Source of the DNA: Edaphochlamys debaryana
Lineage: Eukaryota > Chlorophyta > Chlorophyceae > Chlamydomonadales
Assembly (NCBI GenBank): GCA_016858145.1
Contig: JAEHOE010000003.1
Location: forward strand, 868,001-932,000
Reading direction: 5' to 3'
DNA: 64,000 bases
Shown: piece after piece, positions 7,142 to 31,407 of the stretch
Layout of the letters: each line of letters begins with the position of its first letter
Position numbering within the stretch: position 1 is the stretch's first letter
The notes under the pieces: model-generated
The model's input: only the letters and a program-made list of their open reading frames with translations
What the model was told of the DNA's origin: nothing
Database searches by the model: none
Position numbers and translations under genes: made by a program

Positions 7142-10100
7142 CTACCTGCTGGAGCCCTTGAGCCGCCGCAGCAGCGCCGCCGGCTCCCCGAACCGCGCCT
7201 CGAACAGTGCATCGCTCTGCGCCCCTGCGCCGCCGAAGCCGCGCCGCCAGTCGGCCCGCGCCGCCGCCTCCCAGCGCCGAGCCCGCGCCGACGCCTCGCG
7301 CCCGCTTGGCCCGCCGCTTCCCGCCGCCCGCGCGTACCCCACCGCCAGGCTCATAGCCAGCTGCGCGGGAGGGAGGGGAGCACAAGCGGAGGCACATGCG
7401 TCGGGGTCGCGCGGCGACAGGAGGGGTAGGGTTGGCAACATGCGGGCAGAGCACGGAAGGTCTACCCAGCGGCTTCCAGGCTGAGCCCAACGTGACTCAA
7501 TCGCTGCGGCTGCCTCCATCCTTCCAGTCTCCAGGGCCGCTGCAGGGCGCCTTGCTCCCTCGGGCCCTTCCCACCCTGCGGCCGCACCTGTGTGGCCATA
7601 GCCAGGGAGCAGCAGGGCCCCTCCCCCTCCCCCGAGCCGCCCCGCCACAGGCAGGCGTACAGCTGCTCGTAGGCAGAGGCGGCACCCGGCTCGTCCTGGT
7701 GGAATGGAGGGGCCGAAGCGGTGGTGAGGATTGAGGGGTAGGCAGATGGGGCAAGAAAAGGTGCAGCCGGGGGGCCTGAGGCAAGGCAAGCGTCTCGGTA
7801 ACTACGGGCGGCATCCCCTGCTGGGATTTCCTCCCGCCTCGGGCGGTGCCCCGTCACCCCCCCCCTCACCCCGGCCGCCTGCAGCAGGAAAGCTAGCATG
7901 CCGTACGGCTGCACCAGGGCCAGGCGCCAGCGGAGGCCCTGGGGGCACATGGGGGGTAATGGCGAGGGGTCATGGGAGGGCCGGGCGTTGTGTGCTAGGC
8001 GAGGGCGTGTGCATGAGGGGATCGGCTGCAAGTCCCGCCCAAGACTCCAACCTGCGATGCTGCCTCCAGCCGCGTCAGCAGCCCCTGGAGCCGGGCCGCC
8101 ACGGGCGCGACTACGGCGGCTGCACTGGTGCCCCCAAGCCCACGGCTTGCCGCCGCCGCCGCTGCCGCCGCCGCCGCTGCGTCCACGCCGGGCTGCAGCG
8201 CCGCCACCTCAGCCAGAGAGCCCTGCAGCTCCAGGGACTGGCGCGTGGGGGAAGGACAGGGAGGAGGGGACCGGGAGAAGGGAGGGAGGATAAGGGCGTG
8301 AAGGAAGGATCTCTGCATTCTACGAGGAGGGAGGAAGCACGGGAAGCGGGTGGAAGCACAGGTGAGGATGGAGTGTTGCTGGCTGGACAGCAGCAGAGGA
8401 CTCCGGTACTGGCCGGTGCAGGCAGCGGACCTCAGCAGACCCCGCGGGTTGTGGTGGAAACGTTGGTACAACAAGCACCTCCTAGAGTGTCCCCAGAGGC
8501 CCGCGCCGTGCTTCATTCCCTGCCCGCAGCTCCCACCTGATCTGGGTGCGCCTCAACCCAGGCCGCCTCCTCGGTGCACAGCTCGCAGGCGCACGCAAAA
8601 CCGTACTTGGCGAGCGTGCGGGCGCGGTCGTGGGCGGGGCTGAGGGCGTCGATGTACGGCATGGTGACCTGGCAGCCGTGGGTAAAGGGGAGGGATGGGC
8701 GAAAGGGGGGCTAAGGAAGGAATGGCGAGGCCCTGTAAGAAAGGAACGGGTGTGGCGGGTGCGGGCCAGTCAGGTCAGGAGCGTGGTGTTGGGTGCGTGG
8801 GTGGATGGTGGGGCGCTTGGGGGCGCGGGCGGTTTCGCTCCTGCGCCCACGCACCTCGGTGCTGGCGGGGATGTTCGTGGTGGCGCGGATGAAGATGAAG
8901 TCGCCGATGAAGTAGCTGGCGGGCGGACAGGCGGCGGGGAAGCGCAGGGAGGGGAGGAGGATCAAGGGTTTACGTGCGTGTGGATAGCGCCACAGTGCCA
9001 GCATAACCCCTTCATGCCACCCTGTCAATTAGACCAGAACCGCAGCGAGCCCGTGCTATCTGCTACACCAAACCTATGCAAGTGATGCACCCCCGTAGCC
9101 CTGGTGCCCCTACCCTACCGGTGTGCGTTGGCGATGCAGGCGTGGTTGATGTACGACGCCAGGCTCCAGATGCCGCGCGCCTGCATGTACCTCGCCTCGC
9201 CGCCGGCGCCAGGTGCGTCCCCAACCCTGGCCCCGCCAGCGTCACCGGCAGCGCCATTGCCTGTGACGTTGGATGCACGAGCACCGTTCTTCCCACTCCG
9301 ACTGCCGGACTTGCCGCCGCCGCTCTTGTTCATTCCGTGGGGCGGAGCTGACGCGGCAGCGACGGGTGCGGCGCGCAGCTCGGGCAGGGGAATGGGGGAG
9401 AAGGCGTTGAGGGAGGTAATGCGGGCAACGGCCGCCTCGTCGACGCTGACCAAGCCTTCGGGCGAGACCTGCACCAAAGGCAGGACAGATGCAAGCGTCA
9501 GCGCAGACTGCAAGGAGCGCCATGGCTTTGGGGTATAGTTTGAGGGCATGGGGGAGTATGCGTGTTTGGGAGTCCGCCCGCACCTTGAGCAGCCCGCTCT
9601 CGCTCAGCCAGCCCCAACCGGCGTCCTCGTCTGCCTCCTCGCAGCCGCCACACTTCGCTCCTGGAGGTGCCGCCACCGCCGTGCCGTAGCCACATGCAGG
9701 GCTCGGAAGCGGCGGCATCACCTCGACGCCTTCGCACCCGCCCCCTGCGCCGCTCCCCGCTCCCACAGCCCCAGCCATGTGGGACAACCGCAGGGCCAGG
9801 CGGGCCCGGGCCAGGACCGCGACGGCCAGGTCCCGGTCCAACTGCTCGTGCGTTGGGCCCCTCGGGGCCTCGCTGGGCCCACCGTCAAAGTACCCAGGTG
9901 CTGCGGTGGGTGCTGCTGCCGCGCTTGCGGGCGCCTGCACCTCCCCCAGAAAGCACACGGCGTCGGCCTTGCACGCCAGCAGCAGCTCCCCCGCAGCCAC
10001 GGCCCGGGTCGTCACCAGGCCCCGGCCCCGGCCCCTGCTGCGCTGCTGCCCGCCCGCAGCCTCCACGCCTTCCCCTGCTGCCGCTCCCCCCTGTTGCGTG

Positions 10101-11789
10101 TTGCCCTCCTTGCTGACTGCGACCGCCTCCGCCTCCGTGCCCGTGTGCCCGCCTGCGTCCATGTCCGCCATCGCCACCGGCCCCACGAAGTCCGCGGCCT
10201 CGAGGCGGGGCGCTGCGCTGCGGCCCGCCTCCCGGGCCATGCCCGCCTCATCGTACGCCCCCGCCTCCGCCTCCGAGCGCCGCTGCTGCAGGCGGGACAG
10301 GTGCAGGCGGCAGGAGGGGGCCTCGCGGGGGCCGGGGGGCGCTGCGGCCAGGAAGGAGCGGTATGCCTCGGCCGCCTCAGCGTACCTGGCGTGGCGGGGA
10401 GGAGGAGGGTTTGGTGGGGAGGAAGGAGGATTATCACATGACAGCCAGAAAGATCGACACGAGGCTTTGCCCATGCTATGCAGCCCCACAGCCCCCCTTA
10501 AGCCTTCCACCTTCCTCGCCCCACCGTCCCAGCTCCCAGGCCCCGACCCACCTGCCCGTCCCCGCCAGCGCTGCACTCCTGCGGCTGAGGGCCTTGGGGT
10601 GGGCGGGCTGCAGCGCCAGCACACGGTCCGCCCAGCGCAGGGCGGAGGCGGGGTCTCCGAAGCCCAGGCACGCGGCGGCGCAGTTGCTCAGAAGGGCCAG
10701 GCGCCGACGGAGCAGCTGCGGGAGGATGGCGCTGCCGAGTAGGCTGCTGCTGCTGCTACAGCCGCTGCTGGTGGTGGTGGGGCTGCGAGGGGAACCAGGA
10801 TCCTGCACGGCACCGTCCGCCCCCGGTCCGCCCTCCCCCGCCCCCAGCCGCGTCAGCAGCGGCCGCAAAGCCTCCAGGCCCTCCCGGTAGCAAGCGAGGG
10901 CGTCCACGTGAGCGCCTGCGCCGTACAGCCGATTGCCCTCCTCGTGCCACCGCGCCGCCGCCTCCGCTGCCACACGGTCAGCCTCCGCCAACTCTCCCTC
11001 TCCGTCTTCCCCGCCGCCGCTGCTGCTCTCTCCACCGCTCCCCGCCCCGCCGCCGACCGCCACCCCCGCCGCCTCCGCTGTCTCCGCCCTGCGCCGCCCG
11101 GCCGGGGACTCCGCCACGAGCTGAGCCCAGGCGGTCCCCGCCACGAGGGGGTGGTTGGGGTCGTCCAGGACGAGCAGATCCAGGGGCGAATCCACGCGGA
11201 TGCCGTACATGGGCCCAGCAGAGCCCCGCTTGAGCCACGGCTCCTTGATTGCGATGACGCTGCCGCGGGGCAGGAGGTGCGAGGACACGTCCGCGCTACA
11301 GCCCGGCGAGATCTCGGCTGGGTCCGTTGCGAGGTTGTAGACCGACAGGCGCTGTTGCGGCCCCGCCAGACCCTGCACCACCGTGAATACGGCGCGCAGC
11401 CTGAAGGGCGTCGCGGGGGTACGGCAGATGACGTACTTGCCCATGTGCAGGGCGCCGGGCCGGAGGTCAGACAGGGCGATGGGGGCGAGGGCGGAGAGGG
11501 GGAGGCGGCAGAAGCGGCTGACGGGCGCAAACCCTGGCGCCAGGCCGGGGTGGCGGGTGAGTAGGGACGCCAGCTCCGTTTGTTCAGCGATGTGCTGACG
11601 CAGGGGTGCGGGCTCGTTACTCTCGTTAGGTCCCGGAGCAGCTCGTGGGGTGGTGGCGGCTGGTCCGGCACGGCCGGGCTTGTCGGCTGCAGCGCTGCAG
11701 TTCATCATGGATGCCTTCAGGGCTCGACGCAGCTCGTCGATGTCCGGGCCCTCCATCCCAGGGAGCAGGACCAAGTTGTCTGTGTTCAT
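7142..11789 (-). CDS. TPR and SET-domain protein (putative protein lysine methyltransferase)
   Basis: Nine exons join in phase to 1,054 residues: 11789-10552, 10385-9584, 9468-9119, 8915-8855, 8668-8537, 8237-8052, 7938-7870, 7695-7588 and 7360-7142. Order: an N-terminal region (~1-280), TPR helices (~283-430; EEGNRLYGAGAHVDALACYREGL, then SNCAAACLGFGDPASALRWAD), then a SET domain beginning at GRGLVTTRAVAAGELLL (~530). Its core is interrupted by a Gly/Ala insert and resumes at IWSLASYINHACIANAHR, YFIGDFIFIRATTNI and the post-SET segment YGFACACELC. This layout matches plant TPR-SET proteins such as the Arabidopsis At1g33400 type, which lack the MYND finger of SMYD enzymes. The usual N-H-S-C-x-P-N signature reads N-H-A-C-I-A-N, so catalytic competence is uncertain. 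The C-terminal ~200 residues are helical and Ala-rich. Start: the ATG at 11787-11789; upstream in-frame codons are not ATG. Confidence 0.85.
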
Positions 11790-16007: not shown

Positions 16008-19000
16008 ATGGCCAGCGCTGTGGTCAAAGCGCTGGTGGCTGCTCGGCAGAAATGCCTGACAGATGTAAGCGCGCAAGCGTCGGGAAATGGGGTTGATGCA
16101 ACTGCACAAGCCGCGTGTTGCGCGCCAATCCCACACAAGCTGGGTGATCAGGGCGCTCTGCGGCGAGTACATCTGGTCCGCAGACGCCCGCCCGCCCGCC
16201 CGCGCGAGCACACCACGCCAACCACCTATAGGCCCCACGCCCACGCTCCCCCTCCCCTCCTCCCCTCCCCTCCCCTGCATTCCCTTCGCCCTTTGCAGGA
16301 CGAGGCGTACTGGGACCCAAAGCCCGACTTCACGCGCCCCATCTCGGCCCGCAACGAGGCCGCGGCGCTGTCCTGGCTGCTGGACCACCAAGCGGGTGGG
16401 TCGGGGCGGTGCTGTCTCCAGAGCGGCAGGCAGGGGCGGGGCCGTCCCAACGCTTCACGGAGATGCGGAGTCGGCTCCGACCCCAGCCCCGGCCCCGCGA
16501 GACCTCTCTACCACCCGTTACCCCCACCTCCCTCCCACACCGCCCCCTCCCCCCCACCATTTCCCGCAGTGGTGTGTCGCGGCGGCCCCGCTGACGTGGC
16601 CGAGCTGCGGGCGCTGTGTGCCGCCTACTGCGCTGCCCAGGGCGCCCGAGCGCCCCCGGAGCAGGCGGGGGAGGCGGAGGCGGAGCGGGGGGCGGCGGCG
16701 GCGGTGGCCCCCGCTGCAGGAGCTGGGACAGGGGCTGGGGCGGGCGTTGGGGGTGCGGAGGCTCCGTCCACGTCTGGGCGGAGCTTCGAGGAGGCCTCGG
16801 CGGAGGCGGCACTGCAGCGGTGGGGCCCGGGGGGGCGGCGAGGAGGGGAGGGGGAAGCTGGAGGTGTTTGGGGGGAAGAAGATGTAGAGAGAAAGGCTAA
16901 GCGCGTGTGCTAGGGCGGGGTCTCAACCTGCGGCCGGGCTGGGCCCAGGGGCGAGAGCGGCGGGATATGGGAGCCGTGGGCCTGGCTCGGGGGCCGGGCC
17001 GTGTGCGGGGGCAGGGACGGTCGAGTTAGGGGCAGGGTCTAGCGCTGGACGTGGGGCGGCAGGGATGAGAGGCGGGCCCTTGAGCTGGATGTGGATGCCG
17101 AACAACTAGCAGCAGATTGCGCAGCCAGCCTCTGTCCCCTTGACGCCTCTCAGCCGTCGCCCTCCCTCTGCTTCCCCCCCGCAGGTGGTGCACGGACAAG
17201 GGCGTCAAGGGCCCCGCCTCGCCCGCCCTCTTCGGCGCCGCCCCCTCCCCCCTCCTCCCCCTCCTCCCCCTCCTCCCCCTCCTCCCCCTCCTCCCCCTCC
17301 TCCCCCTCCTCGCCGCCGCCCCTGCGCGGCCTCCGCGCCGATGCCCCCGTGGCCCCCGGGGACGTGGTGCTGGCGGTGCCCAGCGAGCTGCTCATCAGCT
17401 ACGAGTACGCCAAGGAGTCGGACCTGGTGGGCCCCGGGTAGCTACCGGTAGTGGGCCACGTGGGGGGTGTCGGTAGCTTGTGGCGGGTGTGTGGGCGTGC
17501 CCGCAGCCCACAGGGGCCGTGCACCGCCCAACACCCGATCACCGGGGCTGACGTCCGCCTTGCATCGCCAGCATCGGCCATGGCCCCACTGCTGCTCAAC
17601 CTTGCGGCCCCGCGCCACCCCGTCCTGCACCCTATGGCTGGTCTCCCTCCGCCGCCTTTCCCCTCAGTCCCCCCTCCCACCTTCCTCCTCTGATCACCAT
17701 GAATTCTCTCCCCTCCTTCGCCTCCATCTCCATTCCCTCCTCCCAGGGCAAGGTGCTGTGCGCGCTGCCCCTGGGCCTGGGCGACGACTCGGTGGCCCTC
17801 GTGTGGACCTGCGTGGAGCGCCACGAGCCCGAGGCGGCGCACGCACCCTTCTGGGGGGCGCTGCCGGAGCGCTTCGCGACGGGTGGGTGGGTGGGGCGCG
17901 GGAGAGGGGGCGAGCCATTCTTGAAAAGGATGAAGAATGAGTCTCCGGGTGCGTGGGTGTGATGAGGTGACCCGGGAGGGGGTGAGGACTACGCAAGGGC
18001 CAGCGGAGGGTGTGGCCGTAGCAGGCGCGCAGTCGTGTCCGCGGCCGTTTCCCGTTGCGTGGGTTCGTCCCGCCCACCCCGCCTGGTAGCGACACTGTGA
18101 CGCTGGACCTGGCCCTCCCGCATCCCCCGCGCCCCTCCCCCCGCCACCCCCCAGTGCTGAGCGCCGCCGAGGAGGACCTGGAGCTGCTGGAGGGCACACC
18201 GCTGGCGGGGGAGGCGGCCCGGGCGCGGCAGGTGGGGCCCCGGCGCCGGGCTGCGGAGGGCTGCGGGCCCCCGAGGGTGGCTGGGGCCCATGCAGCGCTC
18301 CCGGGGGGCCAGGCGAGCCGCATCCTGGGGCCAAGGGTGCAAGCGGCCTCGTCGCATTCCGTCCTTCCTCCCTGCATCTGTTCCCGCCACCTGCGCCCCG
18401 ACGCACGTGCTCGCCAGCCCATCCGCAACAGAGCACTCCTATGCCATCTTGTGGTGCCGGGGGGGTGGGGCCACCGAGAGAAAGACCGTACGGTACGGCG
18501 AACACGGTCTTCCTCACGAGCCACAGTTTGCTGTTGTCCAGCTGCGCTTGGACGCATGCACCAGACCTACAGCTTCCTATGACACTCGCCGGCGGTGCTC
18601 GCTTTATTAGGGTAGTCCGGGGCTTGCGCAAGCAACCAAGGATGGCCGACTCTGACGGCGAGCCACCTCGCAGGAGGCGCAGGCGTACCAAAGACTCGGG
18701 GTCTACGCGAGGCTCAGCAGCCGCAGGGGGCGCTGGAGGCCTGCGCGTCTTTAGCTCGCTCGTCGTTGAGCAGATACGCAGCCGACCAGTGACGACGTAC
18801 AACGCCGTGGCGGACGCTCTGTGCGCCCCACCCCTCCCGCACCCCTCCCGCACCCCTCCCACACCCCTCCCACACCCAATTCCACCCCTCCCGCACCCCA
18901 CCCCACCCCTCCCGGCTCCGCAGCACATCCGCGAGGCCTTCGACGCCTCCGCCCCCGCCTTCGCGTCCCTGCTCAAGGCCTACCCCGACTACTTCAAGCC

Positions 19001-21228
19001 CGAGTGGTTCACGTGGGAGGCCTACGTGTGGGCCGCGGAGCTGTGGTACTCGTACGGCATCCAGGTGCACCTTACGGGGCTGCCCGCGGGGCAGGAGGCG
19101 CCCACCCTCCGATCAGGGCAAGGGTACCCACCCACCCACATCCCAACCTTCCCTCGGAGACAACCATCAACGCGCCTGGCCGACACACCCCCACTCCACT
19201 CCACTCCTACTCACTCCCACCAGGTCCAGTTCCCCGGCGGCGACATCCGCACCTGCCTGGCCCCCTACCTGGGACTCATGAACCACCACCCCCTGCCCCA
19301 CGTGGTGCACTTCTCCAAGGTCGACCCCGCCACAGGCTGCCTCAGGTGCGGGGCCTGGGGATGGGGTGCGGGCGCGGGGACGGGGTGAGGGGGAGGACGG
19401 GTCGGGGGTGCGGGTGCGGGTGCGGTTACAGGCGCTGGCACGAGTGCGTGGGCGGGGGCTTTGGCGTAGGTCCTGGCTCGGGAGCGAAGGCGTGGGACGT
19501 AGGGCAGGGGCGTTAGGTGAGGAGGAGGGAGGGGGCGCGGTCGGACGGGGCCCTCCTCGTGCTGGTGCGGGTGCTAGAGAGGGCTGCAAGGGGTGGAGGG
19601 CGCACAGGAGGGCGCATGGCGGGGAGGGTGCAACAGGGATCAGTCGGATGGCCCCACACCGTGCACCCCGTATTAAGTATTCGCGCCCGTTCTCGCCCCG
19701 CAGGGTGCGCGCCTTCCGGCCCTGCGCCCCCGGTCGCCAGCTGTTCCTCTCCTACGGACCTTACCCCAATGGCAAGGTGAGCGCCCCCAGCCAGACCTGA
19801 CGAATGGCCGCGAGTTGCCGTACGCCAATTGGATCTAGAGTCATGTGCCGTGGTTTCAAGCCTAGTCCATCCCAAGGCACGATTCCAGGTACCCACGCAC
19901 CACGGCACTGCGCCCCGTTGCCTAAACAAACCCACACACCCGTCCGCCCCCAGCTGCTGCTCTTTTACGGCTTCGCGCTGGAGGACAACCCCGCGGACGA
20001 GGTGGAGCTCGTACTGCAGGTATGACGGTACGGCAGACGTGTACAACCAGCGATTTTTTTGCGTACTATAGTACACTTGCGTACTATTTAAATAGGACGG
20101 CTTCCGTGACGCGTACTATTAAATGCTCGAGGGGTCCTGGAAAGCGGTCCGAGAGTACGCCCGGTTCAGGTGGGTTTGACACGGTTGGGCCCTGTTGGGC
20201 CGGCCGTTTGTGGTACTAGGGTAGCTCCCACGGTCTCTCAGAAGCGCCACTTGGAAAGCAGCAGTCCTGCAGAGTTCTTCTGGCAAGTGGCTGCAGCCTC
20301 AGCGCGCCATTAAGGCTTCAAATGCGATCCGAGTGGGGCCTGGGGGTCAATGCAACGTGCAGCTAGCCGGGTCTGGCCGCCTGGGGGTGCGCACACTAGT
20401 GAAGTGCGTCCCTTGCTCTCTGCTAGAGCCCAGCGGTAGGTTCAATGGAGGGCATCGATTCTATGCAAATTTCTGCGTGTTTTTGAGCCCCATATTGCCA
20501 AAATTTCTTCCGGGGGGAGGGCCCCCCGGACCCCCCCGGTTGGGGGCGGCTTCGTCGTCATGCGTACTATATCAAGGCCTGGGAGGCCGGTGATAGTACG
20601 CACCGCGTAACGAGCATGGGGAGGGGGCAATCTGAAAAAAGAATCACTGTGTACAACTGTACACCTCAGCACGGCAAGGCCCTTGTCGCCTACCGTATGC
20701 ATCCCCGCTTGCACCGGCCTCCAATCTCACCTCCCCACCGCTCAACCCTCCTCCAAACATCTCCAGGTACCGACGGGGCCCTCCGCCACGGACCGCCGCG
20801 CCATGCTCACGGCCGCCAGTCTGACCTGCGAGCACCGCCTCCGCTCGTCAGACCGGCTGGCGCCGGCGCTGCTGGCGGCAGCGCGCGTGCTGGCGGCGCC
20901 GCCGCCCCACCTCAAGCGCCTCCGCGCGCTTCCGCCAGCGGACCTCAAGGCCAGACTGCACGCGGCGCCGGGTGCGGTCGGGAAGGAGGAGGCGGAGGTG
21001 GACGCGGCGGCGATGAGGCTGGTGGCGGCGGCGGTGGGGGCGCTGCTGGCGCCGGCGGAGGCGGCGGAGGTGCGGCTGGCGGAGGCGGCGCCGCAGGCCG
21101 CCGACAGCCCCGCGCGCAAGGAGCTGCGGCACTTCGCGCGGGTGTACGCGAATGGGGTGGTGAGGGTGCTGCGGGCGGCGAGCGGGGCGGTGGCGGCGGG
21201 GCTGGCGGCGGTGGAGGCGTTGGCGTAG
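16008..21228 (+). CDS. SET-domain protein, Rubisco LSMT/SETD3 type
   Basis: Eleven exons: 16008-16064, 16299-16395, 16570-16819, 17185-17426, 17747-17882, 18155-18231, 18924-19064, 19224-19345, 19704-19776, 19954-20019 and 20767-21228. That gives about 573 residues, allowing one frame correction. These enzymes methylate Lys or His in plastid or cytosolic proteins. Recognisable in order: RWCTDKGVKGPA (start of the split SET), GLRADAPVAPGDVVLAVP, GDDSVALVWTCVERH, AEEDLELLEGTPL, WFTWEAYVWAAELWYSYGIQ, PYLGLMNHHPLPHVVHF, LFLSYGPYPNGK and LLLFYGFALEDNPADE. A helical C-terminal domain of the LSMT substrate-binding type follows. The usual N-H-S reads N-H-H. All junctions are in phase, but exon 4 is one base too long: the WCTDKG and RGLRAD frames differ across a C-rich repeat. 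The intron before exon 7 contains a copy of DP exon 1, and the last intron contains a palindrome-bounded insertion. Confidence 0.82.
17240..17310. repeat. 9-bp CTCCTCCCC tandem tract inside SET exon 4
   Basis: About eight units of a 9-bp C/T-rich repeat lie between the WCTDKGVKGPA and RGLRADAPV coding blocks. The unit length preserves frame, but irregular C-runs at its left edge leave the exon with one base too many. It would encode either Leu/Pro or Pro/Ser repeats, depending on frame. Confidence 0.8.
18486..18826 (+). pseudogene. duplicate of DP promoter and first coding exon, inside a SET-gene intron
   Basis: This 341-bp block is nearly identical to 21621-21961. The 185 bp from the ATG (18642-18644) onward match perfectly, while the upstream part has a handful of substitutions and small indels. 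It carries the first 62 codons of DP (start MADSDGEPPRRRRRRTKD, up to YNAVADALCA) but stops before the donor site, the RRRCYD recognition helix and the rest of DP. It sits in the intron between SET exons 6 and 7, in the same orientation. The frame has no stop and continues through 18923 straight into SET exon 7 in the correct SET frame, so a transcript from this copy could encode a chimera. Whether it is expressed is unknown. Confidence 0.85.
20061..20601. mobile_element. candidate non-autonomous DNA element in last SET intron
   Basis: The last SET intron (20020-20766) is unusually long. Within it, GCGTACTAT occurs at 20061, 20079, 20111 and 20562, and its reverse complement ATAGTACGC ends the stretch at 20593-20601. 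The left end GCGTACTAT and right end ATAGTACGC could be terminal inverted repeats of a ~541-bp MITE-like insertion. The right-hand pair (20562-20601) also forms a hairpin by itself. No transposase or clear target-site duplication is visible, so the boundaries are tentative. Confidence 0.35.
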
Positions 21229-21776
21229 AGGCCTAGAGGGTGCTGGGTATGTGTGAGCAAATAGGCAGGTGCGAGAGACGGTGAGCCTAGTAAACATGCA
21301 TCTGGGCTGAACCACATTCAGAAACACGGCCAGAATGGTGGGTCCAAAGTCTGGACGTGGCCTCCCGGGCTGACGCCTGGTCGGCCAGAACACGAATTCC
21401 AACCGGCGCGGTCCGGCAGGCCACGGCAGGCCCATCCTCCCTGCCCCACCCCCACGCACTGGCACCCGACGGCGCTGCACCTGTCTGTGGAACTCAGTAA
21501 CGCACGACACGGTCATTTCCTTCAGCAGTAGCGCAAGCCCGCACAACGCGGGCAACGGGCTGAGTGTACAACGGGCTGAGCGCACGAAGAGACGGTTCAG
21601 GTGAGACGATTGAGGTGCGGCCGTATGGTACGGCAACACGGTCTTCCTCACGAGCCACAGTTTGCTGTTGTCCAGCTGCGCTTGGACGCATGCGACGGAC
21701 CTACAGCCACCTATGACACTCGCCGGCGGTGCTCGCTTTATTTAGGGCAGTCCGGGGCTTGCGCAAGCAACCAAGG
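21229..21776 (+). promoter_or_regulatory. DP upstream region, including duplicated promoter block
   Basis: This 548 bp lies between the SET stop codon and the DP start. Its right part (21621-21776) is the copy whose partner lies at 18486-18641. A TTTATTTA-like element at about 21737-21744 lies ~35 bases before the ATG and could act as a TATA box. No coding frame here looks real. Confidence 0.5.
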
Positions 21777-24700
21777 ATGGCCGACTCTGACGGCGAGCCA
21801 CCTCGCAGGAGGCGCAGGCGTACCAAAGACTCGGGGTCTACGCGAGGCTCAGCAGCCGCAGGGGGCGCTGGAGGCCTGCGCGTCTTTAGCTCGCTCGTCG
21901 TTGAGCAGATACGCAGCCGACCAGTGACGACGTACAACGCCGTGGCGGACGCTCTGTGCGCGGAGATGGGCGCGGCAGGGGGCCGCGACAACGGAAAGTC
22001 GATTAGGAGGTGAATCAGAATGCTCGCATTCTAGCCTGCGAAGGGGTGCCGCGTGCCCCGCAGAGCCGCACCGTGTGCCCCCGTGCTGTTCATGGGTCTT
22101 GAGGACGTTCGCGGAGGCTGGGGCCCGTCCTGCGCACGGGCCGCCCGCCCGAGCTGCCGAAAGCCTGAACGTCGCCTGGTTACCCTCATCGCGCATTCAG
22201 GAGATGCTACGATGCGATCAACGTCCTGCTAGCTTCAGGACTTTGTGAGAGGCGCGACAAGAAGAGCATCGTATGGCGAGGGCATGCGTCAGTGGAGCAG
22301 CAGCGCACCTCGGCGGAGCTGGACAGCAAGCGGCAGGCGCTGGAGGGCAAGACTGCAGAGCTTGATGTGAGGCAGGAGGGGAGAGCTCCAGACGAGCCCT
22401 GCCAGCCACGGCGTTGGACTGCACGCTGGCCCGACCCCAACCTCGACCCCAACCCCAACCCCGACCCCGACCCCGACCCCGACTTCCCCACAGGACCTTA
22501 ACCAGCGGCATGCTGCCCTCGAGGCCCTGGTCGCTCGCCGCGCCTCCCACGCGGGAGCAGCAGCGGGGCCAGGAGCAGCAGCAGGAGGCGGCGGCGGGGG
22601 CGAGGCCAGGCCCAGCGCCAGCTCGTCGGCTGGGTCCGACTCGGGGCGGCCGGAGCCGCTTCGGATCTCCCTGCCGTTCATGATCGTACAGGTACGACAC
22701 TCCTACCACCCTGTCGCACTGCGCTGCACGTCTGCTTCCCAGCGCGGCCGCTGCCAGCAGCCCCCCGCCCACGCACCATGCCAGGTCCCACCCCTGCGTA
22801 CCCCGACCCCCGGCACGCCCCACCTGCATCCTGATTCCGATACTGTGCCCACACGTGCGCCTCCCCTCTCGCCACTCCGGCGCGCAGGCCCGCGCCGGAG
22901 CCGAGCTGCACGTGCGCATCGCCAACGACCGGTCGCAGGTGGTCTTCGAGGCCTCGCAGTGAGCCGGGGGGCGCCCTGCTTTGGGGGCGGGACCTGGGGA
23001 CTAGGGACTGTGGACCGGGAACTGGGGACTGGGGCCGGGGCCCGGGGCGGCGGCGGGGCCTGACGGCGGAAGGGAGTCGTCGCGGCGTAGACTGAGTTGC
23101 AGGGCCTGGGGATTCCGCGGCTGAAGGTCGCGTTCCGCCCACTGCCACGCTGCCCCAGGTCCGACCTGCAGGTGCACTCGGACCACGGCGTGTTGCACCA
23201 GCTGCACCGCGCCTGGCAGCAGCCGCCTCCGCAGGCGCAGCACGCACCGCACGGGGCGCAGCACGGCGCTCAGGGGCCCCAGCACGCTGTTGGGATAGCG
23301 GCGGCGGGCGTGGGCGCGGGGCCAGGGCCCTCCTCGACAGCGGCGGCAGCAGCGGCGGTGACAGCGGCCAGGCCAGCGGAGCCAGGGCTCGATACGCGCG
23401 CGTCCGCTGCCGAGCGGCTCTCCGACGGGGGCCTGCCTCGGGCGTCGACGGGGGGCGGCACGGCTCCGCTGCCCACGGCGCCAGCGGCGGCGCACCCGGC
23501 GGAGACGCTGTCCACGGCGCAGCCGCCGCCTCCGCCGCCGCAGCCGCCCCTGCCGTCGGCGCACCTGATGCAGCGTCAGAGCTCGCATCCCTTGGGGGCC
23601 GCAGCACCGCTGCTCGGGCCCGCGCCGGCCGGTGCCGCAGCGGACGCCGGTCCCGCAGGCGCCGTGGCCCCAGGCGCGCTGCCCTCGGCGGGGTGTGCCT
23701 CGACGCTCAGCCAGGGCGCGCTGGCTCAGACCCAGCCCCTGCCGCTACCGCACCCGCTACCGCACCGCTCTCGCCACCCGCTGCAACGGCAGCTCTCGCT
23801 AGTCAACCCGCCGCTGCCACCGGACGGGGCAGGAGCTGGGGCAGGGCCGGCGGGAGCGGGGGCGGGGGCGCAGGCGTCCGCCGGCCTGCCCTGGCCCCCG
23901 CTGACCTCGCAGCCCCTCAACCTGCCGCCGCTCTCCCAGCCGCCCCCGCTGCCCCAGCTCCCGCCCCTTCCCTTCGTCCCCCACGCCCACGCCCACGGCC
24001 CGGCTCGCGGACGGACGCCCTCGCTCCCGCCAGGCGCCGGCACTGGGAGTGGCGGCACCGCCCTGCGCCCCCACGACTCCGCCTCCCTCGTGTGCAGCGA
24101 CGACATTGGGCAGCTGCTGGGTCTGACCGTGGCCGCGCCGCCGCCCGCGCCCTGCCCCAGCGTGGCCCTCGGCCCCGCCACCGCCTTCTTCCTGCCCTCG
24201 GGCCTCGAGGCCTCGGCCAAAGCCTCCGGCGCGGCGGCGCGGGCGGAGCCCGGGGCGGCGATCTGGGTCAAGGCGGAGACCAAGACGGAGCCGGAGGGAG
24301 CGGGGGCCGGCGTAGGGCCGATGGCGGGGTCCGCGGAGGGCGTGCAGCCGCACCCGTCCAGCGCGGGCTCGGGCGCGGCGGCAGTGGCGAGCTCCGCGCT
24401 CGGGGGGCCGGTGCCGGGCGAGCCCGCCACGCCCGGGCCCTTCCTGCTCAGCCCCCACGCCGGCCTGGGGCTGCCCGGGTCGCACCCGTTCGGCTCTGGC
24501 ACGCCCCACCATGGGCTGCTTGGAGGGCTGCTGCCGCCGCACTCGCCGCTGCCGTCCCTGTTCACGCCACACGCGGGCGCAGGCGGTGGGGTCGGGTCGC
24601 TGCCTTCGCTCTTCTCGCCGCACGCCGGGGCGGCGGGGGGCGGCGGGCCGGGCGTGCTGTCGCCGCTGTTCACGCCGCACGCGCTCAGCACGCCGCACGG

Positions 24701-25842
24701 TCCCGGGCACAGCGCGCACAGCACGCTGGCCAGCATGGTGGCGGAGGAGCTGCCGCAGCTGGGTGAGTTGAGGGAATGGGGCATGGGGAAGGGGGAAGGG
24801 GGTTGGGAGGGTGACAGGCAGGGGCCAGGCCGGCGCGGGAGGTATGGGTGGAATTGAGGGGACTGGATTGTGGGCTGCAACAGGCAAGGGGCCAGCACCC
24901 GTGGGAACGGGGGCGACGCAGGGCGAAGGTGCGGAGTGCGGCGGGCGCTGGTGCTGGTGCTAGATGCAGAGGCCGCTACAAGGGGTCGTGGGGTATGCAA
25001 GCAGCCCCCGTGTCCCCACACCCCAACTCCCGCCTTCACTCCCTTCCCGCCTCACCCCCAGCCGCCCTGCTGCCGCTCATCTCGGACGACCCCGACCCCC
25101 TGACTCCCTTCGGCCCCGCGGGGGGGCTGGGCTCCAGCAGCTTCGGCGAGGGCGTCCCCACGTACCTGGGATGGCCTTATGGAGCAGGTGTGGGGCGGGG
25201 AAGTGGGAGGGGAAGGCTGGCCCTAAGGAGCAGGTCGGAGGGGTAAGGATGGAGGGGGAGGGGCACGGGAGGGGCTTTGTCCTCAGGACCGGGTGGCAGA
25301 TGGAACGGGGGAAGGGAGGCCACCACGAGGCGCCACGGTTCTATGGGGGCCTGTGTGCTGGGGGAAGTGCGCAGTCAGCTGGGATCAACGTGGGACAGAG
25401 GCTGCACCCTCAATTGCAGCCTCGGTGGGCTGGGAACGGCCGAAGGGACTTGTGGGGCAGGGCGTCACCCTCGTCGGACTTGCCCGACTCTGTTTCGAAA
25501 GTCACGCTGACTCTTCCCGTCTGTCGCGCATCGTGACCTGCAGGCGTATTCGAGACCACGTCCCCGTCGGCCGCAACCCATGGCGGGGCGGGGGCCGGAG
25601 CAGCGGGCGCCGGTGCTGGCCCCTCCTCTGGCGCGCCCGCACCCGCCACCGTAGCCGCAGCCGGGGGCTCAGCGCCCGGGGCCGGGGCCTCAGGGACCGG
25701 AGCCGGTGGCAGCTGCGCCGGGGGCGGCGGGTTCGCGCCGGGGCAGTGCCGCGGTGTCACGTGCAAGGCGGACCCCGAGGGCCCGCTGCAGCCCACGGCG
25801 GCGCACGTGGGGGTGCACGTGGGCTCGGGTGCGCAGAACTGA
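21777..25842 (+). CDS. DP, dimerization partner of E2F transcription factor
   Basis: Seven exons in phase give 898 residues: 21777-22009, 22201-22366, 22494-22691, 22888-22958, 23159-24762, 25062-25187 and 25544-25842. DP pairs with E2F to bind cell-cycle promoters in the nucleus. A basic N-terminus precedes the winged helix: GLRVFSSLVVEQIRSRPVTT, YNAVADALCAEM, then across the first intron SIRRRCYDAINVLLASGLCE and KKSIVWRG. This is the DP signature (N-I-R-R-R-V-Y-D-A-L-N-V-L in animals). A coiled coil follows (EQQRTSAELDSKRQALEGKT, then DLNQRHAALEALVARR), then the DP dimerization domain (RISLPFMIVQ, AELHVRIANDRSQVVFEAS, SDLQVHSDHGVLHQL). The remaining ~600 residues are Pro/Ala/Gly-rich and unusually long for DP, which is normally 300-450 residues; they could be an activation or interaction tail. 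The first exon is duplicated 3.1 kb upstream. Confidence 0.9.
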
Positions 25843-27294: not shown

Positions 27295-30200
27295 GACCGC
27301 CCTCGCCGCCGCCTTCCCCCTCGCCGCCGCCGTCCCCCCCGACTCTCGCAACTGCGGCCGCCAGGGCACGTGCCTCGACGTCGTTGTTGACTCAGCAGAG
27401 TGCTACTACGTCGGGCTGTTCTTGTACTGCCCCGTACAGCTGACGTACCCGCGCTTGGGCAGCTCGTGCTACTACGACTCGCCCAACCGTCTGCCTAGCA
27501 GCGACACGGACTACGTCTGCAGCGGAGATCGCGGCAGCGTGGTGCTCACCAATGTCGGCAGCAGCCTGCACCCTGGTGGCATAAACATCGAGCAGTTCTG
27601 GAATAACCCATCCAAGACCTACACGCAGTGGGCTCGCTGGTCGCGCATCAACAACGACTCGTCGACGGCGCTCTTCTCAATCATGTCGGGCTCGCAGAGC
27701 TGCGCTGCTTCTGGCCGCAGCCTGTCGCTGGAAATCAATGGGCTGGACGCAACTTGCACGGCGCCTCGCATCGACGCCACATCGGGCGAATACCTGGGCT
27801 GCAGCACCAAAAACGGTACCATCAACAACGAATGGTAAGCGTAGCGAACTGCCTAGCCCGCCCAGGCGTGAATGAACTCGATCGCAGCGTCCAGCTGTCA
27901 ACTCGCTGTTCCTTTCCGGACGCCTGCCCGCAGCCTGTGGAACATCACGGTGCAAAAGCCCGGCGGCCCCATGTGGAATGGCCAGAACTGCGTCCGCGAC
28001 GGCCCGTCCCGCCCGGACGCTCCCGGGCTGTCGGTGTTGATTTCGCCCGTGTACCTTGCGCGCCCTCCACCGCCACCTTCGGCCCTGTCGCCCCCACCGC
28101 CCCTGCCGCCGCCGCCATCCCCCTCTCAACCTCCGCCTCCGCCGCCGCCTCCTCCTCCTCCTCCTCCGCCCCACCCGCCGTCACTGCCACCTGCGCCCCC
28201 AGCGCCGCCACCACCCTGTCCACCAGGGTTTGGGTACTATCCTGAGAATATCTTAGGGCTGTGCGTAGCGTGCAGCAGCGGCGGGGCCGAGTACGGGGTC
28301 CGGTACTCCACAGGCAGTACGCCATGCTTGAGATGCCCTGAGGCTCCCTGGGCGCACTGTGCCACACCGCCACCCAGCCCCGTTCGGCATGAACTCAGTT
28401 TCTCTTATGTTTGCTACATTCAGACCGGCGTGTTTTACCAGTGCGCTCAAGGTTGCGAACCCGCCGGCGGCTGGGCAGACTGTAACCAGACGCCCTCCGA
28501 CGGCTGCGAGGTACGCGTTGCGTTGACAGCATCGAGCCAGGCTGCTCGTGAAGGCCATTTAGCCATCGTGCACCCGTGCTTGCAGTCGGACACGCGCTCG
28601 GACCCAAGCAATTGTGGAGGCTGCGGCAATGGTGAGTGAGGTCTCGCCCACTTGCATCAGCTAGGCGCAAGCTAGTATGCTTCCCGTCCGTGCCCTTTCC
28701 GCAACTGCCCACCGCGCCTGGACCCCGCCCCATCCTCTCACATGCCTTCCCAATCACAAGTCTGCAACCCGGGCTGGACCTGTGAGGCGGGAGTCTGCAC
28801 TGCGCCCCCTCCGCCGCCACCGTCACCACCTTCGCCATCGCCCCCGCCTTTCCCGCCGGCGCCGTGCTCACCAGGGTTTGGGTATTACCCCGATGACCCC
28901 GCGGGGCCGTGCAAAGCCTCCAACAGCGGGGCTGAATACGGTTTAACCTACTCTACAGGCAGTACGAAGTGCTTGGCATGCCCTTCCGCTTCCTGGGCGC
29001 ACTGCCGTAATCAGCCGGCCCCCGTAGCCCCCGGCCTCCCCGCTACTCCTGTTGGTGGCTCGCCATACTGCTACACAGAGACCGGCGTATTTTACCAGTG
29101 CGCTTATGGTTGTGCCGGCAGCTGGGCAGACTGTAACCTAACGCCCTCCGACGGCTGCGAGGTACGCGTTGCGTTGATTGACAGCATCGAGCCAGGCTGA
29201 TCGGTAAGGCCATGTAGCCATCGTGCATCCGAGCTTGCAGTCGGACACGCGCTCGGACCCCATGAATTGTGGAGCCTGCGGCAATGGTGGGTGAAGTCCC
29301 GGCGGCGGCACGCTGCCACCTACCACACCTGACAACATTGGCTCATCATCGCTTTCCGGTCCCATTCCCCGCCAGCCTGCTCCACAGCAATGGGTTGGAC
29401 CTGCGACATGGGAATCTGCACTCCCCCACAGCCCCCGCCCCCCATGCCATCTCCGCCCTCGCCCCCTCCAACCCCGTCGCCATCTCCGGACCCACCGCTA
29501 CCGCTTCCATCACCGTTACCCTCACCGGATCTCCCTACTCCTCCCTCGCCCCCACCTCCAAACCCTCCCCCTCCATCCCCAAGTCGTCCACCTCCGCTTC
29601 CACGCCCTCCGCTGCCCCTGCCGGGGGCAGTGCCGCCCCGGGCTCTCCCGCGATCCCCGCCACCGCGGCCACCTCCTCCATCCCCTCCCCCGCCATCCCC
29701 TCCCCCGCCATCCCCTCCCCCGCCATCCCCGCCTCCACCGCCGACTCCGGCCCCACCACCCCCGCCACCACCCTCGCCACCCCCAACACCGCCACCTCCG
29801 CCGCCCCCTCCGCCGCCCCCCCCGAGATCGCCCCCTCCGCCGCCACCCCCAGCATTGCCCCCTCCACCGTCATTCCCAAGACCGCCGCGGCGGCCGCCGC
29901 CGCTGCGACCCCCCTCACCGCCGCCATCTCCGGACCAACCGCTTGCCCTTTCCGTCACCGTTACCCTCACCGGATCTCCCTACTCCTCCCTCGCCCCCAC
30001 CTCCAAACCCTCCCCCTCCATCCCCAAGTCGTCCCACCTCCTCTTCCACGCCCTCCGCTGCCCCTGCCGGGGGCAGTGCCGCCCCGGGCTCTCCCGCGAT
30101 CCCCGCCACCGCGGCCACCTCCTCCATCCCCTCCCCCGCCATCCCCTCCCCCGCCATCCCCTCCCCCGCCATCCCCGCCTCCACCGCCGACTCCGGCCCC

Positions 30201-31407
30201 ACCACCCCCGCCACCACCCTCGCCACCCCCAACACCGCCACCTCCGCCGCCCCCTCCGCCGCCCCCCCCCGAGATCGCCCCCTCCGCCGCCACCCCCAGC
30301 ATTGCCCCCTCCACCGTCATTCCCAAGACCGCCGCGGCGGCCGCCGCCGCTGCGACCCCCCCTCACCGCCGCCATCTCCGGACCAACCGCTGCCCTTTCC
30401 GTCACCGTTACCCTCACCGGATCTCCCTACTCCTCCCTCGCCCCCACCTCCAAACCCTCCCCCTCCATCCCCAAGTCGTCCACCTCCTCTTCCACGCCCT
30501 CCGCTGCCCCTGCCGGGGGCAGTGCCGCCCCGGGCTCTCCCGCGATCCCCACCACCGCGGCCACCACCTCCATCCCCTCCCCCGCCATCCCCTCCCCCGC
30601 CATCCCCTCCTCCGCCACCCCCGCCTCCGCCATCCCCGCCTCCACCGCCGCCTCCGGCCCTACCACCCCCGCCACCCCCGCCGCCTCCACCTCGGCCGCC
30701 CCCACCCTCGCCACCACCTCCCCCACCTCGGCCGCCCCCACCTCGGCCACCGCCGTCGCCACTTTCGCCGCCAGCACCGCCGCCACCCTGTCCGCCTGGG
30801 TTGGGGTACTACCCCGGAGACCCTGCTGCTGGGCGATGCCAAGCATGCAACGGCGGGGCCGAGAACGGAACAACCTACTCCACAGGCAGTACTCCGTGCT
30901 TACCGTGCCCCGTCGTCAGCGGGAAGAACTGCCGGTCCGCCAACTGCTTCTCGGCGAACGGCATCTTCAACTTCTGCCAAACCTGTGACCCAGCCTACCA
31001 CGACTGCACGAACCCTTCTGACGGCACCAATGATGGATGCGAGGTATGTCGCTCGCTGCTCATAGCTGTGCACGGCCGCCAAGGCAACTCGGCTTTCCAC
31101 GCAGGCCCTCGAGTCCACTTACAACCGTTGCCCTGCTTCTGCCTGCCTCCGCAGTCTTACTGGCTCACCGACCGCAACAATTGTGGGCAATGCGGTAATG
31201 GTGAGTGGCAGGGTCCAGGGTCCCCCCCCCCCCGTAACCTTGTCCCTGATTCTCATTCTCCCCCCCCCCCCGCCCACTTCGTTCTTGTGCCCCCGCGCGC
31301 CAGCTTGCTGGAGTGGTTGGCCCTGCAATGCGGGAGCATGCTCTGCTCCGCCGCCGGCGGCCTACTTGCCGGCCCAGCCATCGCCAATGCAGCCTGTAAC
31401 GCCCTAA
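27295..31407 (+). CDS. modular Cys/Pro-rich secreted (extracellular matrix-type) protein, 5' end unresolved
   Basis: Exons: ~27295-27834, 27934-28510, 28586-28631, 28761-29161, 29241-29286, 29375-31043, 31155-31200 and 31304-31407. The N-terminal Cys-rich domain (RNCGRQGTCLDVVVDSAECY to GLSVLISPVY) is unlike a family I can name. Then come Pro-rich spacers (PPSPPP type, probable hydroxyproline glycosylation) alternating with three Cys modules: C-x-P-G-[FL]-G-Y-Y-P, YSTGSTxCLxCP, GVFYQCA, ending D-G-C-E. Each is followed by a 46-nt exon with N-C-G-x-C-G-N, then C-x4-[PT]C-x3-G-x-C. The spliced D-G-C-E...D-P-x-N-C-G-x-C-G string resembles Cys motifs repeated in some bacterial surface proteins. 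It is probably secreted to the cell wall or matrix. No signal peptide was found: the frame opens after a possible acceptor at 27294, and a C-run there may hide a frame error. The Pro-rich part of exon 6 changes frame within ~444-bp repeats, so its translation is uncertain. Confidence 0.7.
29483..30620. repeat. ~444-bp tandem repeat in the Pro-rich exon
   Basis: Units starting TCTCCGGACC lie at 29483, 29927 and 30375, so the spacings are 444 and 448 bp. The third copy is partial and degenerates into simple Pro codons after about 30620. The second copy has longer C-runs than the first: 3 vs 2 near 30027, 9 vs 8 near 30270 and 7 vs 6 near 30360. A T is also inserted near 29945. The Pro-rich frame therefore changes between copies. 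Confidence 0.85.

What the first reader, a model, noticed from the sequence alone, without database searches (positions are those of the whole stretch)
18486..19064. DP first exon duplicated into a SET-gene intron and in frame with the next SET exon
A 341-bp block with the promoter side and first 62 codons of DP lies in the intron between SET exons 6 and 7. The coding part is identical to the DP original. From its ATG (18642) the frame runs without a stop through 18923 and enters SET exon 7 (18924) in the correct SET frame, without any splicing. A transcript from the copied promoter could therefore make a chimera: half of a DP winged helix joined to the C-terminal SET/substrate-binding part. 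This may be a gene fusion forming between two adjacent genes. The same reading frame could also be chance (about one in three), with a pseudogene in an intron.
Basis: partly seen in the sequence, partly recalled or inferred. Interest (0 to 1): 0.75.

Follow-up and report, generated by a model that had tools for sequence, protein, structure and literature searches.

The report
DP gene fragment in neighbour's intron
In a green alga, a short piece from the start of a cell-cycle gene (DP) has been copied into an intron of the gene next door; the copy is real but most likely an inert fragment, and its open reading frame into the neighbour is about what chance gives.

Summary
A 341-nt block (18486-18826) is a second, same-strand copy of 21621-21961: 156 nt upstream of the DP start codon plus 61 codons and 2 nt of DP exon 1. 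It lies in SET-gene intron 6 (18232-18923). The copies differ at 9 of 342 alignment columns, all within the first 129; the last 213 nt are identical. Only these two copies were found in the held genome. The frame from ATG 18642 is open into exon 7, as stated.

The fusion reading is not supported beyond chance. All three frames of the 97-nt intron tail after the block are open, so only phase matters: one in three. The chimera would keep about 30 of 73 residues of the DP winged helix, without the RRCYD stretch, and profile positions 62-105 of 105 of the SET domain; neither reaches its Pfam cut-off. The block leaves both splice sites of the intron in place.

Best reading: an ordinary, fairly recent local partial duplication, now an intronic pseudogene fragment, probably spliced out. 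No RNA data could be examined. Unexplained: why all differences lie in the 5' part. Also seen: an apparent 1-nt frameshift in SET exon 4.

The parts
18486..18826 (+). derived copy: 156 nt of DP upstream/5' leader plus 61 codons and 2 nt of DP exon 1
   Evidence: alignment to 21621-21961, 9 differences in 342 columns; only these two copies found in the genome
21621..21961 (+). source of the copy, 5' end of the intact DP gene
   Evidence: the source continues into an intact DP exon 1 (21777-22009); the DP model has E2F_TDP and DP domains
18614..18826 (+). 213 nt identical between the copies
18642..18923 (+). frame of 94 codons from the copied ATG, open into SET exon 7
18232..18923 (+). SET intron 6, 692 nt, host of the block (351 nt without it)
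   Evidence: gene model by frame, splice signals and orthologues
18827..18923 (+). C-rich intron tail, open in all three frames
   Evidence: similar low-complexity stretches at many places in the genome
18924..19064 (+). SET exon 7
   Evidence: conserved in Volvox and Chlamydomonas orthologues
16008..21228 (+). SET gene, 11 exons in my model (SETD3/Rubisco LSMT-like)
   Evidence: the exon 5 border (17881) is one base short of the GT splice site, 17882 is the likely end
17185..17426 (+). SET exon 4 with an apparent 1-nt frameshift inside a CTCCTCCCC repeat
   Evidence: (enters frame 1, leaves frame 2), both sides matched by eye to orthologues
21777..24761 (+). DP gene, first five exons of my model, last border approximate (the gene continues downstream)

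Best explanation
A DNA-level local duplication copied 341 nt from the 5' end of DP about 3.1 kb upstream, in the same orientation, into intron 6 of the adjacent SET gene. The copy is a truncated, promoter-proximal gene fragment (pseudogene). Most likely it is transcribed only as part of the SET pre-mRNA and removed with the intron; its open frame into exon 7 is a by-product of a GC-rich, stop-poor intron. Shown: the two copies, their differences, the borders, the intact source exon, the open frame. Inferred: direction DP to intron, splicing of the intron, lack of function.
For: Two and only two copies found, same strand, 3,135 nt apart. The source belongs to a DP gene with both DP domains; the copy stops inside exon 1 before its 5' splice site. 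No target-site duplication at the borders and its content (upstream sequence, no poly-A tract) speak against transposition or retrocopying. The tail is open in all 3 frames, so frame agreement has probability 1/3. Of the 14 SET and DP introns examined, 6, this one included, are fully open in the downstream exon's frame. The splice signals of intron 6 (GTGGGG at the start, CCGCAG at the end) lie outside the block.
Against: The 213-nt identical stretch beside 129 columns with 9 differences is uneven: a clean run of at least 213 columns anywhere has probability 0.0015 with 9 independent differences, 0.020 if neighbouring differences are merged to 6 events (simulation). A simple once-copied, neutrally decaying fragment does not predict this; later gene conversion, error-prone copying near one end, or a different donor haplotype would. 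The intron-6 open run (230 codons) is the longest of the 14 introns, though intron 6 is also the second longest of them.
Confidence: 0.86

Rival explanations
1. Nascent gene fusion: the copied DP promoter drives a transcript whose first exon runs from 18642 into SET exon 7 and gives a 381-residue DP-SET chimera.
For: ATG context identical to DP, open frame, spliced model of 381 residues without an internal stop; in the copy an upstream ATG (18579) has also come into the same frame through a 1-nt deletion.
Against: Frame agreement is 1 in 3 by chance. The chimera scores 18.7 bits for SET (cut-off 22.4, profile 62-105 of 105) and nothing for E2F_TDP at E<=1: both folds are cut. All 9 differences lie in the presumed promoter/leader part, so that part is the least preserved. 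No RNA evidence available.
Confidence: 0.04
2. The copied block acts as an alternative promoter or regulatory element inside SET (truncated or non-coding transcripts, or binding of regulators of DP), without a useful chimeric protein.
For: The block holds 156 nt upstream of the DP ATG at 94% identity.
Against: No E2F-type site (TTTSSCGC or WTTSSCSS, motifs recalled) on either strand of the block or of 21228-22009; all differences fall in this part; nothing shows that 156 nt is a whole promoter.
Confidence: 0.07
3. Assembly artefact: one locus assembled twice.
For: 213 nt are identical; an apparent frameshift in nearby SET exon 4 shows that the local sequence may hold errors.
Against: 9 differences, several of them clustered, and different flanks on both sides; both copies lie inside one 2.84-Mb contig.
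Confidence: 0.03

Closest known systems
Partial gene duplicates, including 'partial duplication with recruitment' (Katju 2012, PMC3449122; passages of sections 10, 11, 13 and 14 seen, not the whole text)
   Same: one ancestral genic source, truncated copy, new flanking sequence that extends the open frame
   Different: here no expressed gene is shown; the flanking sequence is an intron and exon 7 of a neighbour gene
Truncated duplicated pseudogene in an intron (general knowledge)
   Same: DNA-level copy with upstream sequence, lacking most of the gene
   Different: frame still open and the coding part identical, so decay is not yet visible there
DP subunit of E2F/DP (Pfam PF02319 and PF08781); volvocine proteins P0008-P0011
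   Same: the source gene has both domains
   Different: the copy has only about 30 of 73 residues of the winged-helix match
SETD3 / SETD6 / Rubisco LSMT-type SET methyltransferases
   Same: orthologue P0001 of the host gene matches chains of all three
   Different: host gene only; a chimera would lack the N-terminal half of the SET match

Membership tests
Partial gene duplicate | derived from one genic source, missing part of it | tested here: met
   341 nt of the DP 5' end only, stops inside exon 1
Partial gene duplicate | ancestral versus derived copy verified with an outgroup genome | not testable with these tools
   no DNA of related algae held (note: no relatives here); direction inferred from the intact DP gene
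Partial duplicate with recruitment / chimeric gene | open frame extended by neighbouring sequence | tested here: met
   not beyond chance
Partial duplicate with recruitment / chimeric gene | expressed as a transcript and protein | not testable with these tools
   no RNA or peptide data on hand
Retrocopy | mRNA-derived copy with poly-A tract and target-site duplication | tested here: not met
   carries 156 nt upstream of the ATG, stops in exon 1, no poly-A tract, no target-site duplication; longest shared word near both borders is CCACC
Transposable element | dispersed copies in the genome | tested here: not met
   two copies only
E2F/DP winged-helix protein (the copy) | PF02319 above cut-off | tested here: not met
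   62-residue copy: 0 Pfam families at E<=1; N-terminal 259 residues of DP: 47.4 bits
SET methyltransferase (the chimera) | PF00856 above cut-off over the whole domain | tested here: not met
   18.7 bits against 22.4, profile 62-105 of 105

The most novel reading that the evidence does not exclude
The copied DP 5' end is a working alternative first exon of the SET gene, so that a cell-cycle promoter now makes a 5'-truncated, DP-tagged SET protein, perhaps kept because the full-length SET frame is broken in exon 4; gene conversion with DP keeps the copied exon identical.
Probability: 0.03. Interest if true: 0.55.

Novelty: new member of a known kind. Interest (0 to 1): 0.17.

Why it matters
If a transcript were found, it would be a very young gene fusion caught with donor and copy side by side, of use for the study of how first exons and promoters are captured. 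As it stands it is a clear example of a recent local partial duplication and a reminder that open frames in GC-rich algal introns mean little.

Tried and rejected
Conserved fusion in relatives: of the 7 protein hits, 5 were fetched and 4 aligned (P0001-P0004); none of the 4 has a DP-like stretch at the exon 6/7 junction. Conserved SET-DP neighbourhood: two DP searches (4 distinct proteins, from Astrephomene, Volvox africanus, Gonium and Pleodorina) gave no DP from C. incerta, C. schloesseri or V. carteri, so gene order could not be compared by locus tag. No protein row marked as encoded by this window appeared, so published gene models of the locus could not be examined.

Bicistronic SET-DP transcript (suggested by the lack of TGTAA between SET stop and DP ATG): dropped. 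TGTAA is not enriched in 264 kb (128 seen, 124 expected), and the next plus-strand TGTAA after the DP start lies at 28481, about 2.6 kb beyond a possible DP stop that I read by eye near 25840 (not modelled), so its absence says nothing here. A paper search on polycistronic green-algal genes was seen as a listing only.

Background rate of local duplications: in 264 contiguous kb, 3 pairs of at least 100 nt, at least 90% identity, more than 200 nt and less than 10 kb apart and of high complexity (a fourth pair within 10 kb, the repeat at 29453-30703, was dropped as tandem and low in complexity). One is this block; one (C3:862781/864474) has only its two copies and, from neighbouring matches, seems part of a larger older tandem duplication; one (C3:827858) is a repeat family with at least 40 places. 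The sample is too small for a rate.

Other E2F/DP genes as donor: the E2F_TDP family gave 4 matches in the genome, on C38, C18 (two) and here; the DNA searches point to the adjacent DP alone.

A small intron in SET exon 4 that would restore the frame: no AG occurs between the repeat and the conserved LRGLRAD stretch (positions listed).

Papers: listings only for (other than PMC8226300; other than PMC3449122); passages of PMC8226300 and PMC3449122. I made no search on whether this locus is in print.

Full report
What is there. The block 18486-18826 is a second copy of 21621-21961, same strand, 3,135 nt upstream. The alignment has 342 columns with 7 mismatches and two 1-nt indels. All 9 lie at or before 18613; the remaining 213 nt, from 28 nt before the ATG to the end of the block, are identical. 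A search of the held genome (141,892,200 bases, 502 contigs) found the block only at these two places; the other 55 of 57 matches of that search cover the low-complexity intron tail. The SET-DP intergenic region as query again gave only these two places.

Where it is. I built gene models from frames, GT-AG borders and orthologues. SET: 11 exons, 16008-21228; proteins from Volvox carteri, Chlamydomonas incerta and C. schloesseri were the best of 7 hits among 7986 scored candidates and align along the model, except over exons 4-5 where my translation is out of frame. The model ends exon 5 at 17881, one base before its GT splice site; with the likely end 17882 the whole model is one base out of frame, which is the exon-4 frameshift. 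Orthologue P0001 carries the SET domain (PF00856, residues 193-403) and resembles SETD3, SETD6 and Rubisco LSMT chains (13 distinct PDB sequences). DP: ATG 21777, five exons modelled to about 24761; its first 259 residues carry E2F_TDP (47.4 bits) and DP (45.4 bits) domains, with volvocine relatives. The block sits in SET intron 6, 254 nt after its start and 97 nt before its end. Without it the intron would measure 351 nt; the other nine SET introns measure 159-747 nt.

Which copy is derived. The DP side continues into an intact, conserved exon and gene, and the intron side stops within exon 1 before its splice site. That the intron copy is derived is therefore inferred, not tested with an outgroup. 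Borders show no target-site duplication and no long shared word. The copy contains upstream sequence and no poly-A tract, so it is not a retrocopy. A template-switch or end-joining insertion is my inference.

The frame. From 18642 the frame is open to 18923 and enters exon 7 in the SET frame. This needs little: the DP part is open by descent, the 97-nt tail is open in all three frames, so the only requirement is phase, one in three. Before the block too the intron is open in this frame: all 230 codons of the intron are. Six of the 14 SET and DP introns examined are fully open in their downstream exon's frame, including this one, which has the longest run. Intron retention would not join exon 6 to this frame, as 692 is not a multiple of 3.

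What a chimera would be. 381 residues: 62 of DP origin (the last completed by a host base), 32 of proline-rich intron sequence, then SET exons 7-11. It keeps about 30 of the 73 residues matched by E2F_TDP in DP and lacks the RRCYDAINVLLA stretch, which is invariant, but for the S/C/A position that follows it, in the 4 DP proteins aligned. Of SET it keeps profile positions 62-105 of 105, 18.7 bits against a cut-off of 22.4. Exon 7 corresponds to residue 298 onward of P0001, so 105 of the 211 residues of its SET match are missing. Neither half is a plausible working domain; this is inference, as no structure was predicted.

What does not fit neatly. The differences are unevenly spread. If 9 differences were independent, a clean run of 213 or more columns somewhere would occur in 0.15% of cases; with neighbouring differences merged to 6 events, in 2.0%. 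Later gene conversion over the coding part, error-prone synthesis towards one end of the copy, or a donor haplotype with a different upstream region could each do this. Constraint on a chimeric protein would not by itself keep synonymous sites and the 28-nt leader identical.

Organism. Size, contig number and base composition (67.5% G+C in 264 kb) fit Edaphochlamys debaryana (142.14 Mb, 527 contigs, 67.1%; Table 1 of PMC8226300, passages seen). This is an inference.

Verdict. The fusion idea rests on a frame agreement that chance gives one time in three, and nothing else examined supports it. It is filed as a partial gene duplicate in an intron, a known kind (PMC3449122, passages seen). Expression was not testable here.

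Noticed in passing
window 17185-17426: SET exon 4 enters in one frame (WCTDKGVKGPASPALFG) and leaves in another (LRGLRADAPVAPGD), both resembling orthologues: an apparent 1-nt frameshift inside a CTCCTCCCC repeat, either a sequencing error or a broken gene.
   Followed up: partly
window 18579 and 21713: An upstream ATG of DP opens a 10-codon reading frame in the original; in the copy a 1-nt deletion puts it in frame with the DP ATG, giving an unspliced frame of 269 codons.
   Followed up: partly
window 9905-11525: Inverted match (90-94% identity) to C3:829209-830847, about 47 kb away, at a minus-strand reading frame that looks SET- or TPR-related by eye.
   Followed up: no
window 29453-30703: Tandem duplication with a spacing of about 444 nt, 94% identical, in a proline-rich coding-looking region that may be a secreted or wall protein (by eye).
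   Followed up: no
C3:668001-932000 (L013-L032 and window): The pentamer TGTAA, recalled as the usual poly-A signal of green algae, is not enriched over base composition in these 264 kb (128 seen, 124 expected).
   Followed up: partly
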